Below, one piece after another: positions 5,149-26,408 of a stretch of 33,030 bases of DNA. The position numbers were made by a program, and so were the translations under genes. The notes under the pieces are model-generated. The model did no database searches. It was not told the origin of the DNA and was given only the letters and a program-made list of their open reading frames with translations. The DNA comes from an uncultured Clostridia bacterium. Lineage in GTDB: Bacteria > Bacillota > Clostridia > Christensenellales > Borkfalkiaceae. The stretch is from assembly GCA_947630775.1 (NCBI GenBank), contig CANRIY010000003.1, positions 1 to 33,030 on the forward strand, written 5' to 3'. Position 1 is the stretch's first letter. Every line of letters begins with the position of its first letter.

Positions 5149-6498
5149 TTATTCGCCCGAAAAGCGGCGGATGCGCTTTAAGAGATAGGCGCGGTCGTTC
5201 CGCTTGCCGTCGAGCGCACACTCGAAGAGGAGCGTTTTCAAAACTTCCGCCGTCTCCTTTGCGGGCACGCCCGCCTCGCGCACGTCCGAGCCGTTGACTT
5301 TGAGCTCTTTGAGCGTCAAAGGCGCGCCCTCCGCCCGCATTTCGGAGAGGATCTTTTTCCATTTTACAACGCAGGGAGCGGGGGAGAGGTCGTCCATGCA
5401 CGCCGAATAATCCGCCTGTTTGACGGCGAAGAGTTCTTCAAGAAGGGGGAAATTTGCAACGATCTCCCGCCGCACTTTCGTTTCCTTCATGCGGAGATCG
5501 AAGTCGCGCATGTGCAGCCGCACGAGCGCACAGACCCGCTCTTTCGTTTGCGCCGGGGCCTTGAGGCGGGTGAGGGTCTCCCGCGCGATGCGTTCCCCCT
5601 CGGTCTCGTGGCCGTGATAGTTCCCGTAATTTTGCATGCAGTAGGGCTTTCCCACATCGTGCAGGAGAGCGGCGAGACGGACGCTATGCTCGGCATATCC
5701 CGCCGCGCGGAGGGAGTGTTCGAGCACATCATATTTGTGAAATTCCGCCCGCTGCATCATGCCTTCGCCCAATGTGAGCTCGGGCAGGATCTCGCGGAGC
5801 ACGCCCGTCTCTTTGAGGATGCAGAGCCCGCGGTAGGGCGCCGCTCGGTCACCCAGCTTCTCGTCCGCATGGAGAAGGAGCATGAGCTCGGCATAGACGC
5901 GCTCGGGGACGATGTCGCGGATGAGAGAGGCGTTCTCCCTTGCGCCTTCGAGGCAGGCCTCATCGGGAAGAAAACCCGTCTGGGCGGCTTGGCGGGCGAG
6001 CCGCATGAGCCTGAGCCCGTCCTCGCCGAATACTTTGCGGGAGGGGGCGACGGTGCGCAGCTTCTTTTCGTTGATATCGCCGATCCCGCCGAGGGGATCG
6101 AGGAAGCTGTCCGCCTTGATGTCGTAATAGACCGCGTTACAGCAGAAATCCCGCCGCTTGGCGTCGAGCACGATGTCGTCCGTAAAGACGACGGAAGAGG
6201 GGGCATGAACCCCCTTTTCGTAAGCGTCGTAGCGGAAACGGGTGAATTCGCAGGCGACGCCCTCTTCATCCTCGAGCTTGACCGTCCCCGTGCGCGGATA
6301 GAGGGCGCGGACGGTGAACCCGCATGTTGTTGCGGCAGAGATGAGCTCTTCGTCGCTCCCCGCGGCACAGATATCCCAGTCCGCCTCTCTTCGGGGAAAC
6401 CCAGCAAGGCGGTCGCGCACGCTTCCCCCGACGACATACAGGGGGAAGGGACAGGCGTCTGCCAGTTTCAGAAAACTTTTCGGTAAAATCTCTCTCAT
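5149..6498 (-). CDS. cca: CCA-adding tRNA nucleotidyltransferase with HD domain
   Basis: LYVVGGSVRDRLAG...EADWDICAAGS, RRDFCCNAVYYD, HD motif LAALLHDVGKP. Confidence 0.93.
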   Translation of the reverse strand: MREILPKSFLKLADACPFPLYVVGGSVRDRLAGFPRREADWDICAAGSDEELISAATTCGFTVRALYPRTGTVKLEDEEGVACEFTRFRYDAYEKGVHAPSSVVFTDDIVLDAKRRDFCCNAVYYDIKADSFLDPLGGIGDINEKKLRTVAPSRKVFGEDGLRLMRLARQAAQTGFLPDEACLEGARENASLIRDIVPERVYAELMLLLHADEKLGDRAAPYRGLCILKETGVLREILPELTLGEGMMQRAEFHKYDVLEHSLRAAGYAEHSVRLAALLHDVGKPYCMQNYGNYHGHETEGERIARETLTRLKAPAQTKERVCALVRLHMRDFDLRMKETKVRREIVANFPLLEELFAVKQADYSACMDDLSPAPCVVKWKKILSEMRAEGAPLTLKELKVNGSDVREAGVPAKETAEVLKTLLFECALDGKRNDRAYLLKRIRRFSGE

Positions 6499-23609: not shown

Positions 23610-25010
23610 ATGAAAAAATTATTACGGCTTGAGATCGCGCTCCTCCTTGCGGGGTGCGCTTTTTTTACGGGCGGCTGGACGTTCGGCAAAGTCAGAAAGG
23701 GAGTTGTTGCGGACGGGGTCGCCGTCGGCGGGCTCACCTATGCCGAGGCGGCGGAGCGGGTTCGGAGAAGCTACCGCGACGAACCCTTTACCGTCCATAC
23801 GCCCGAGGGGGACGAACTGTTCGAAACGGAGTATGCGGATGACCTCGACGGGCTTCTCCGCGCCGCCAAAAAGGGTGAGGAAGTCCATGCCACGCGCAAG
23901 AGAGTCTGGGTGAATGCGGAGGAGGAGCTCGCTTCCCTCTGCGCCCGTCACAGTTTTGCGGCGGCGGAGGCCTCGCTCTCCTTTTCCGCGCGCGGCTTTT
24001 CGTATACAAGGGAAAAAGCGGGGCGGGCATGCGACCTTTCTGCGCTCCTTTGCGATGTGTTTGACGCCATGGAGCGGGGAGAAAACGAGGCGTCGCTCAC
24101 CGTGTTGCCCGTGCAGGCGGAAATTACGGAAGAAGACTTGCGTGCGCGTACCCGTCCGCTCGCTTCCTATACGACCTATTTCGACGCCTCGAACAGCCCG
24201 CGGGCGCACAATATCGCCCTCGCCGCAAGCCGCATTTCGGGGACGGTGATAGGCCCCGGGGAGGAGTTCTCCTTCAACGCCGCCGTGGGGAAGCGTACGC
24301 GGGAGAACGGCTTCGAAGAGGCGAACATCATCTCGGGCGGGGAATTTGTTTTGGGCGTAGGGGGCGGAGTGTGTCAGGCCAGCACGACGCTCATGAATGC
24401 GGCGCTTTTGTCGGGGCTCAAAGTGACGGAGAGCCGCCCGCACTCCCTCACGGTGGGCTATGTGCCCCCTTCGCGGGACGCAATGGTGTCGGAATATTCC
24501 GATCTGAAATTCGTCAATCCCTACCCCGAACCCGTCTACTGTTTGGGACTTGCGGGCGGGGGAAAGGTCCGCTTCACCTTTTACGGCCTGCCCGACGGCT
24601 GTCGCTACGAAGTGGAGAGCAAGGTGCTCCTCACTGCCGCTCCGCCCCCTGAAAAGATCGTCGAGGGGGAGGAGGACAGAGTGCTCCGTTCCCCCAAAGC
24701 GGGCGTGGCGAGCGAGAGCTATCTCCTCGTCTACCGCGGAAAGGTCCTTCTCCGCCGCACCCTTCTCCGCCGCGACACCTATGCCGTCGTGCAGGGGATC
24801 CGTCAGGTAAAGCCCACCGACGCACCCGAAGCGCCTTCTGACGGGACTTCTTCCGGCGACTCATCGAAAACACTTGACAGCCCCGCTCTTGCGGGATATA
24901 ATGTGAACAAATCGAATATTCTTTGGGGCGGAGTGAAAGTCTCCACCGGCAGTATAGTCTGCGAATCCCTTTGGGACCGAACGGGTGCAATTCCCGTACC
25001 GACGGTATAG
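23610..25010 (+). CDS. VanW-family (YoaR-like) protein; 3' end overlaps ribU promoter and FMN riboswitch
   Basis: AAGGAG ribosome site; SRISGTVIGPGEEFSFNAAVGKRT...GGVCQASTTLMNAALLSGL...RPHSLTVGYVP; no stop until TAG 25008-25010. Confidence 0.88.
   Translation: MKKLLRLEIALLLAGCAFFTGGWTFGKVRKGVVADGVAVGGLTYAEAAERVRRSYRDEPFTVHTPEGDELFETEYADDLDGLLRAAKKGEEVHATRKRVWVNAEEELASLCARHSFAAAEASLSFSARGFSYTREKAGRACDLSALLCDVFDAMERGENEASLTVLPVQAEITEEDLRARTRPLASYTTYFDASNSPRAHNIALAASRISGTVIGPGEEFSFNAAVGKRTRENGFEEANIISGGEFVLGVGGGVCQASTTLMNAALLSGLKVTESRPHSLTVGYVPPSRDAMVSEYSDLKFVNPYPEPVYCLGLAGGGKVRFTFYGLPDGCRYEVESKVLLTAAPPPEKIVEGEEDRVLRSPKAGVASESYLLVYRGKVLLRRTLLRRDTYAVVQGIRQVKPTDAPEAPSDGTSSGDSSKTLDSPALAGYNVNKSNILWGGVKVSTGSIVCESLWDRTGAIPVPTV
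24874..24902 (+). promoter_or_regulatory. Consensus sigma70 promoter driving the FMN leader/ribU
   Basis: TTGACA-17 bp-TATAAT. Confidence 0.9.
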
Positions 25011-25032
25011 TCCGGATGAGAAAAGAAACGCG
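24919..25032 (+). promoter_or_regulatory. FMN riboswitch aptamer (RFN element)
   Basis: GGGGCGGAGTGAAAGTCTCCACCGGCAGTATAGTCTGCGA...GGGTGCAATTCCCGTACCGACGGTATAGTCCGGATGAGAAAAGA; followed by a riboflavin transporter gene. Confidence 0.95.
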
Positions 25033-25040
25033 TATTTGCG

Positions 25041-25066
25041 CGCCCCGCTTTTTGCGGGGCGTTTTT
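25041..25066 (+). terminator. Riboswitch expression-platform terminator
   Basis: CGCCCCGC-ttttt-GCGGGGCG-TTTTT between aptamer and ribU. Confidence 0.9.
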
Positions 25067-25105
25067 CAAAGAATATCCGAAAAAATTTTTTTCAGAGGTG
25101 TTCTT

Positions 25106-25783
25106 ATGAAGGAAAGCACAAAGCAAGTTTTATCGTATCATTTTTCGGCGACGCATATCGCGTACATGGCGCTCTTTACGGCGCTGGCGTTCGTCGTCAC
25201 CTTTCTCGAGTTTCCCATTTTTCCCGCCACACCCTATTTGAAACTCGACTTTGCGAACGTCTTTTTCATGATCGAAGGGTTTCTCTTCGGCCCCGTCGAG
25301 GCGGTCGTCTCCATCGGGATCAAGGAGCTTTTATGCCTGATGAAATCCTCTTCGGGCGGCGTCGGGGAGCTGGCGAACTTCCTCATGTCAACGGCTTACG
25401 TCATCATTCCCGCGGTTTTGTACCGTTTCAAAAAGGGGAGATGGTGGGTCGCCGTGACGCTTGTGATGGCGTGCGTTATGCAGGTTGCGGTGAGCCTGCC
25501 CGTCAACCGCTATATCAATTTTCCCTTCTTTATGCCAAGCGGTGCGGCGGAGCTGTTCCGGGAAGCGTGGCCGTACGTCCTCGCATTCAATGCGGTGAAG
25601 AGCGTAATAATTTCTCTGATCGTGGCGATCATCTATAAGCCGCTGTCCCGTCTCATCAAGGCGACGCGGAAAAAGCTCGAGGCGCGCACCCGCCGCGTGA
25701 AAGCGGCGGCGCAAGCCGAAAAGACGGCATCGGAAGCCGAAAAACCGCAAGATCAGATGGACGAAAATTCTTCAAACACTTGA
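25106..25783 (+). CDS. ribU: ECF riboflavin transporter S component
   Basis: Multi-TM protein, LEFPIFPATPYLKLDFANVFFMIEGFLFGPVEAVVSIGIKELL; downstream of FMN riboswitch; AGAGGTG ribosome site. Confidence 0.92.
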   Translation: MKESTKQVLSYHFSATHIAYMALFTALAFVVTFLEFPIFPATPYLKLDFANVFFMIEGFLFGPVEAVVSIGIKELLCLMKSSSGGVGELANFLMSTAYVIIPAVLYRFKKGRWWVAVTLVMACVMQVAVSLPVNRYINFPFFMPSGAAELFREAWPYVLAFNAVKSVIISLIVAIIYKPLSRLIKATRKKLEARTRRVKAAAQAEKTASEAEKPQDQMDENSSNT

Positions 25784-25808
25784 CAGCCCGCATGAAATGT
25801 GGTATAAT
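25780..25808 (+). promoter_or_regulatory. Consensus sigma70 promoter for the toxin-antitoxin operon
   Basis: TTGACA-17 bp-TATAAT; the ribU TGA stop is inside the -35. Confidence 0.9.
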
Positions 25809-25837: not shown

Positions 25838-26098
25838 ATGGCACAGATTATTCCCATTCGTGATTTGAAAAATACGACAGCAATTTCCGAACGTTGCAAC
25901 GCATCCCGTGAACCGATTTTTATCACAAAAAACGGCTATGGGGATATGGTTTTGATGAGCATGGACGTTTATAATGAGATGTTTGCGGAAATTCGGCTTG
26001 CCCGTGATCTGAAAGAGGCTGAGGAAGAACTCAAGAACGGAAAAGGACTTACATTCGAAGAATTTTCCGAAAAGGTGCGGGAAAAATATGCCTTATAA
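25838..26098 (+). CDS. Phd/YefM-family antitoxin
   Basis: MAQIIPIRDLKNTTAISERCNASREPIFITKNGYGDMVLMSMDVYNEM; AAGGAG ribosome site. Confidence 0.9.
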   Translation: MAQIIPIRDLKNTTAISERCNASREPIFITKNGYGDMVLMSMDVYNEMFAEIRLARDLKEAEEELKNGKGLTFEEFSEKVREKYAL

Positions 26099-26408
26099 AC
26101 TGGTTGTTGCGCCTCAGGCAATGCTTGACATTGATAAAATAGGAACCTATATCAGAGAAGACTTGAAGGCGCCGGAAGCCGCGAAAGCTCTCATAGCCCG
26201 CATTCTCAATGCCGTCGGGCGTTTGAAAGATTTTCCGTTCTCCGGCGAAAAAATCAAATTCACCTATATCCCGGATTGTAATGTGCGCAGGGTTATCGTT
26301 GAAAATTATATCGTTCTTTACCGCGCGGAAGAACTGAATGACACGGTATCTGTTTTGCGTATCCTCTATGGCGGAACAGACTACCTAAACTATTTGAAAT
26401 TCGAATAA
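26088..26408 (+). CDS. RelE/ParE-superfamily toxin
   Basis: MPYKLVVAPQAMLDIDKIGTYI...RVIVENYIVLYRAEE...VLRILYGGTDY; overlaps antitoxin by 11 bp. Confidence 0.9.
   Translation: MPYKLVVAPQAMLDIDKIGTYIREDLKAPEAAKALIARILNAVGRLKDFPFSGEKIKFTYIPDCNVRRVIVENYIVLYRAEELNDTVSVLRILYGGTDYLNYLKFE

What the first reader, a model, noticed from the sequence alone, without database searches (positions are those of the whole stretch)
24874..25010. vanW ORF runs through the next gene's promoter and FMN riboswitch and stops inside the aptamer core
Seen: the VanW frame has no stop through TTGACA-17-TATAAT (24874-24902) or the FMN aptamer; it reads ...SSKTLDSPALAGYNVNKSNILWGGVKVSTGSIVCESLWDRTGAIPVPTV and ends at TAG 25008-25010 within the conserved GACGGTATAGTCCGGATG. 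Thus about 45 residues are encoded by promoter plus riboswitch DNA. Inference: ribosomes finishing vanW on readthrough mRNA would move through the aptamer and could disrupt folding, so the two transcripts could respond differently to FMN.
Basis: partly seen in the sequence, partly recalled or inferred. Interest (0 to 1): 0.66.

Follow-up and report, generated by a model that had tools for sequence, protein, structure and literature searches.

The report
vanW reading frame overrunning FMN riboswitch
In this gut Clostridia lineage a gene-order rearrangement put a cell-wall-type gene (vanW) directly against the vitamin B2 sensor RNA of the next gene, so its reading frame now runs through that gene's promoter and into the sensor; this is real but looks like a tolerated accident rather than an evolved control device.

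Summary
The VanW-domain ORF (23610-25010, 466 aa) has no stop through a perfect TTGACA-17-TATAAT promoter and ends at TAG 25008-25010, inside an FMN aptamer (24915-25031, 102 bits). In relatives, recF-php-vanW and riboswitch-ribU-tsaE-tsaB are two separate conserved blocks. They are joined only in this genome and two sister MAGs (G128, G146). One sister (G128) keeps the same run-through, but a 1-nt indel before the aptamer makes vanW stop at TAA +39 instead of TAG +93. In the other (G146) a small gene sits between promoter and aptamer, and vanW ends at that gene's ATGA. The tail beyond about residue 400 is weakly constrained. Among 138 FMN leaders examined, only this lineage has a credible upstream gene entering the aptamer. 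Best reading: vanW's stop was lost at a rearrangement junction, and the overlap is tolerated because ribU has its own strong promoter. The proposed FMN-response difference between transcripts remains possible but untested. Geometry predicts that vanW ribosomes would push ribU towards OFF. Side finding: in this genus the leader has an anti-Shine-Dalgarno element that covaries with the ribU ribosome-binding site (0 of 5000 permutations).

The parts
23610..25010 (+). vanW-domain ORF, 466 aa, stop TAG 25008-25010
   Evidence: Pfam VanW PF04294 residues 198-325, E 4.6e-44; below the NCBIfam cut-offs for the glycopeptide-resistance VanW models
24810..24873 (+). variable P/S/T/E-rich vanW tail upstream of the promoter (from residue ~401)
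   Evidence: pN/pS about 0.6 versus about 0.14 in the core; only an in-frame 9-nt indel between sisters
24874..24902 (+). ribU promoter TTGACA-17-TATAAT, inside the vanW frame
   Evidence: 12/12 match; a promoter at the same place (-39 to -42 from the aptamer) in many genus members
24915..25031 (+). FMN riboswitch aptamer (RFN element)
   Evidence: RF00050, 102.3 bits against a gathering score of 66.2
24916..24925 (+). 5' strand AUAUUCUUUG, shared between P1 and a 10-bp alternative helix with 25067-25076
   Evidence: near-invariant in the genus; complementary to the downstream element
25008..25010 (+). vanW stop codon TAG inside the aptamer core
25041..25066 (+). GC hairpin CGCCCCGC-UUUUU-GCGGGGCG + U5, probable intrinsic terminator
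   Evidence: 30 nt after the vanW stop
25067..25082 (+). anti-Shine-Dalgarno element CAAAGAAUAUCCGAAA
   Evidence: found in 52 of the leaders examined; covaries with the ribU RBS, own-pair mean -8.02 versus swapped -7.03 kcal/mol, 0 of 5000 permutations
25094..25105 (+). ribU Shine-Dalgarno and spacer AGAGGUGUUCUU; 25098-25105 pairs with 25069-25076
25106..25783 (+). ribU-like ECF transporter S component
   Evidence: Pfam ECF_trnsprt PF12822, E 1.1e-17; riboflavin-specific model below its cut-off; a ribU-type gene follows this riboswitch across the genus

Best explanation
A chromosomal rearrangement in the common ancestor of this genome, G128 and G146 joined the recF-php-vanW block to the promoter-riboswitch-ribU-tsaE block. 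The junction removed vanW's original stop, so the vanW frame now reads through ribU's own promoter until it meets a stop fixed by the aptamer sequence. The overlap is tolerated: vanW's core region is intact, its tail is under little constraint, and ribU is normally transcribed from its own strong promoter, whose transcript never carries vanW ribosomes. On the minority of transcripts that come from vanW, translation to 25010 would melt the aptamer and its 5' strand, leaving the anti-SD element free to close the ribU ribosome-binding site; the downstream hairpin would also form. vanW-derived transcription would therefore contribute little to ribU whatever the FMN level. Shown by sequence: anatomy, gene-order change, lineage restriction, frame change in the sister, covariation of the RBS helix. 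Inferred: promoter activity, tolerance, the OFF prediction.
For: The two blocks are separate and each conserved in relatives; vanW is upstream of the riboswitch only in G000, G128 and G146. Close relatives' vanW ends with its own stop, e.g. ...GIRQVKRMEQEDPDGTSPLPAAHF*. A promoter at the canonical place relative to the aptamer is the genus pattern, so it belongs to ribU. The sister G128 run-through has a different stop and frame; pN/pS is about 0.14 in the core and about 0.6 in the tail. In other leaders with a credible co-directional gene, its stop is at least about 14 nt, usually 36 nt or more, before the aptamer. RBS-sequestering helix: 0 of 5000 permutations; masking to 25022 gives RBS helix 0.99 and P1 0.
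Against: No expression data. Equilibrium folding is sensitive to the upstream sequence included: G128 alternates between states, and shuffled upstream sequence also disturbs the alternative helix, so the OFF prediction is soft. The exact junction cannot be placed. The overlap has persisted through at least one speciation (about 9% divergence in vanW), which would also fit weak selection for it.
Confidence: 0.75

Rival explanations
1. The overlap is regulatory: vanW translation is coupled to the riboswitch, so that transcripts starting upstream of vanW give a different ribU output (insulated or FMN-blind) from transcripts starting at the internal promoter.
For: The geometry forces ribosomes on read-through mRNA across the aptamer 5' strand and core. 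Translation of riboswitch-linked ORFs does alter downstream expression in M. tuberculosis (PMC11260477). Two sister species keep the run-through.
Against: Single lineage; stop position, frame and peptide differ between sisters; a third sister has an intervening gene; the stop is 30 nt from the hairpin, at the edge where ribosomes no longer disturb termination (PMC4824070).
Confidence: 0.12
2. vanW's true C-terminus is earlier or the frame is broken: a sequencing or assembly error hides a stop or a frameshift upstream of 24874.
For: Draft MAG in 184 contigs; the tail beyond residue ~405 is not conserved with more distant relatives.
Against: G128 and G146, other MAGs, keep the same frame through -35 and -10, differing by in-frame indels and many third-position changes.
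Confidence: 0.05
3. The arrangement arose by loss of a small lipoprotein gene: the ancestor had vanW ending in an ATGA overlap with that gene (as in G146), and its deletion fused vanW to the aptamer. (A variant of the origin in the best explanation; both can share the rearrangement.)
For: G146 has vanW-promoter-lipoprotein gene-riboswitch, with vanW stopping at the lipoprotein ATGA.
Against: A tree of vanW+ribU weakly groups G128 with G146 (bootstrap 75; 11 versus 5 versus 4 sites), which favours insertion of the gene in G146; the promoter in G000 and G128 stands at the canonical genus distance; the lipoprotein gene is sporadic, found in 3 of 103 genomes.
Confidence: 0.25

Closest known systems
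FMN riboswitch (RFN element, RF00050) upstream of riboflavin transporter genes
   Same: Aptamer well above gathering score, own promoter, downstream hairpin, ECF S-component gene
   Different: In this lineage the upstream gene's reading frame covers the promoter and most of the aptamer
M. tuberculosis metE/ppe2 B12 riboswitches with translated uORFs (PMC11260477)
   Same: An ORF linked to a riboswitch, whose translation could change downstream output
   Different: There short dedicated uORFs in the leader act on the downstream gene, tested by reporters; here it is the tail of an unrelated upstream gene, only on read-through mRNA, untested
Ribosome-repressed intrinsic terminators near stop codons (tR2 series, PMC4824070)
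   Same: An upstream translated gene ends close to a hairpin terminator
   Different: Here the gap is 30 nt, where that study found near-maximal termination

Membership tests
FMN riboswitch RF00050 | Aptamer matches the covariance model above the gathering score | tested here: met
   102.3 bits against 66.2
FMN riboswitch RF00050 | Controls a flavin biosynthesis or transport gene | tested here: inconclusive
   ECF S-component gene directly downstream across the genus, but riboflavin specificity is not proven: PF07155 is below its cut-off and the best NCBIfam match is a folate-family S component below its cut-off
FMN riboswitch RF00050 | FMN binding switches expression | not testable with these tools
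   Needs in-line probing or a reporter
VanW glycopeptide-resistance accessory protein (NCBIfam equivalog) | Score above the curated cut-off | tested here: not met
   44.1 bits against 365; only the general VanW domain PF04294 is met
Translation-coupled riboswitch/uORF systems | ORF conserved in position with respect to the aptamer | tested here: not met
   Only G000 and G128, with different stops
Translation-coupled riboswitch/uORF systems | Translation of the ORF changes expression of the downstream gene | not testable with these tools
   Reporter needed

The most novel reading that the evidence does not exclude
vanW translation acts as an insulator: ribosomes finishing vanW occupy the FMN aptamer and its anti-sequestor strand, so vanW-initiated transcripts keep ribU shut at all FMN levels and only the internal promoter gives FMN-controlled ribU. 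That would be a natural overlap of a structural gene's C-terminus with a riboswitch used to separate two transcription units.
Probability: 0.1. Interest if true: 0.6.

Novelty: new variant of a known kind. Interest (0 to 1): 0.36.

Why it matters
It is a clean natural example of one DNA stretch serving as promoter, aptamer and protein tail, and of how gene-order change can strip a stop codon and let a gene overrun a regulatory RNA without obvious harm. It gives sister-species controls (three different vanW ends over nearly the same leader) for testing whether ribosomes entering an aptamer alter switching. The covarying anti-SD element suggests that this genus controls ribU at translation as well as, or instead of, at the hairpin.

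Tried and rejected
Two further apparent aptamer overlaps in the order (L217, L197) were rejected: their translations look like wrong-frame or antisense sequence. Equilibrium folding with 0-800 nt of upstream sequence, and with shuffled upstream, gave no robust prediction specific to vanW. An antiterminator competing with the 25041-25061 hairpin was not seen at equilibrium (hairpin probability 0.96-0.99 in every state). Covariation of the 5' strand with the anti-SD element cannot be tested because the 5' strand is almost invariant. Literature searches found no described case of an upstream structural gene ending inside a riboswitch aptamer, but the library is partial (one search was a malformed query). 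In one search the minus-strand loci were read unreversed, so only its plus-strand rows are used here.

Full report
OBSERVATION. The window is one contig (G000:C3) of a 184-contig draft genome. Its close relatives in GTDB are uncultured Clostridia MAGs titled 'Lapin'. The VanW-domain ORF starts at ATG 23610 and stops at TAG 25008-25010. It passes without a stop through TTGACA (24874-24879), a 17-nt spacer and TATAAT (24897-24902), then enters the FMN aptamer at 24915-25031 (RF00050, 102.3 bits). About 45 codons are encoded by promoter plus aptamer.

WHAT SURROUNDS IT. Upstream are recF and a PHP-domain gene. Downstream are a hairpin with U5 (25041-25066), an ECF S-component gene (ribU-like, 25106-25783), a Phd/YefM-ParE toxin-antitoxin pair (25838-26408) and tsaE/tsaB (recF, tsaE and tsaB are named from their sequence, not from a family search). 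The VanW protein has the general VanW domain but is far below the NCBIfam cut-offs for the glycopeptide-resistance VanW models, so it should not be read as a resistance gene.

COMPARISON. The riboswitch is present in most genus members searched (69 of the 72) and is normally followed by a ribU-type gene. It carries a -35/-10 pair at -39 to -42 from the aptamer start in many of them, followed by a conserved AUCGAAUAUUCUUUGGGG block. vanW is present in 77 of 81 genomes searched but lies elsewhere. In the relatives examined, recF-php-vanW and riboswitch-ribU-tsaE-tsaB are separate blocks. Only this genome, G128 and G146 have them joined. In a relative such as G031 vanW ends with its own stop shortly after the conserved GIRQVK motif.

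THE SISTERS. G128 (about 91% VanW identity) keeps the frame through the promoter. One extra base between -10 and the aptamer shifts the frame, and vanW ends at TAA 39 nt into the aptamer. In G146 vanW also runs through the promoter, then stops at an ATGA that overlaps the start of a small lipoprotein-like gene; the aptamer follows about 480 bp later without a recognisable promoter of its own. A tree of vanW+ribU weakly groups G128 with G146 (bootstrap 75), and the lipoprotein gene is sporadic (3 of 103 genomes). I therefore favour insertion in G146, but a deletion in the other two is not excluded.

CONSTRAINT. The VanW core (residues 1-400) evolves under purifying selection (pN/pS about 0.14, G000 against G128 and G146). 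The tail before the promoter is weakly constrained (about 0.6), although its only length change is a 9-nt in-frame indel. Past the -10 box frame and peptide differ between sisters. The aptamer-encoded peptide is therefore not a conserved product.

HOW UNUSUAL. Across 138 FMN leaders from the genus and order, a heuristic gene call found 79 with a co-directional upstream gene. Four appeared to enter the aptamer; two of these are spurious frames. The remaining two are G000 and G128, one lineage. In the other leaders with a credible gene the stop lies at least about 14 nt, and usually 36 nt or more, before the aptamer. Given entry in this phase, reading deep into the aptamer is unsurprising: 45 of 98 aptamers have no stop in that phase within 140 nt.

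LEADER ARCHITECTURE. Downstream of the hairpin lies CAAAGAAUAUCCGAAA (25067-25082). In 52 leaders the first 12 nt of this element can pair with the RBS of the next gene. Own pairs are more stable than swapped pairs (mean -8.02 versus -7.03 kcal/mol, 0 of 5000 permutations), while a control pairing shows nothing. The same element is complementary to the aptamer's 5' strand (24916-24925) over 10 bp. In G000, folding gives the 5'-strand helix without ligand (0.95), and the RBS helix when P1 is forced as a ligand proxy (0.99). This suggests translational control of ribU. The hairpin may add transcription termination, but folding shows no competing antiterminator. The 5'-strand step rests on complementarity only, because that strand does not vary.

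MECHANISM. Transcripts from the internal promoter contain no vanW start, so their riboswitch works undisturbed. Transcripts from upstream of vanW are translated to 25010. Masking up to 25022, as by a ribosome at the stop, abolishes P1 and the 5'-strand helix and leaves the RBS helix at 0.99 and the hairpin at 0.98. The stop-to-hairpin gap is 30 nt; in a published E. coli series termination was near maximal beyond about 27-30 nt (PMC4824070). The prediction is that vanW-derived mRNA contributes little to ribU at any FMN level. The caveat is that folding with more upstream sequence, real or shuffled, also disturbs the switch, and G128 gives inconsistent states, so this is a lead, not a result.

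LITERATURE. The nearest described situation is the interplay of riboswitches with short translated uORFs in M. tuberculosis (PMC11260477), and a ligand-dependent uORF stop-codon read-through in Listeria (PMC12519234). Neither is the tail of an unrelated upstream gene. Searches of the held library found no equivalent, which is weak evidence of novelty because most subscription papers are not held.

VERDICT. The overlap is real and lineage-specific, best explained as a by-product of a rearrangement that removed vanW's stop and is tolerated. The regulatory reading is not excluded and is easy to test with an early-stop reporter.

Noticed in passing
25067-25082 with 25098-25105 (and homologous leaders in the genus): Conserved anti-Shine-Dalgarno element after the hairpin covaries with the ribU RBS (0 of 5000 permutations) and is complementary to the aptamer 5' strand, suggesting translational control.
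   Followed up: partly
24902-25106: The ribU frame is also open upstream through the whole aptamer (previous in-frame stop TAA 24899, inside TATAAT); a -1 shift in the overlap would give a VanW-RibU fusion. Probably chance.
   Followed up: partly
25780-25808: A second perfect TTGACA-17-TATAAT overlaps the 3' end of ribU; the ribU stop TGA (25781-25783) lies within the -35 box of the promoter before the toxin-antitoxin pair.
   Followed up: no
L037, L038, L053, L086, L090, L096, L097 (G006, G007, G024, G060, G064, G071, G072): A subset of genus leaders has a weak or no recognisable promoter near the aptamer and a long GC hairpin without a U-tract just before the SD; they look like operon-internal, translation-controlled versions of the riboswitch.
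   Followed up: partly
L151:1705-2112 (G146): Small lipoprotein-like gene of no Pfam family lies between the vanW-end promoter and the riboswitch, separating the aptamer from its promoter.
   Followed up: partly
L152 about 5892-6044 (G128) against window 25838-26408: The toxin-antitoxin pair after ribU appears degraded in G128: only part of the antitoxin is detected (67%) and the toxin gives no match.
   Followed up: no
L111 after the vanW stop, also L118, L123, L124, L129, L135, L136: Downstream of vanW in several relatives a promoter-like stretch is followed by a shared motif GACTTCGGGCGnTCCTCTGC; L111 gave no Rfam match there. Possibly an unannotated small RNA.
   Followed up: no
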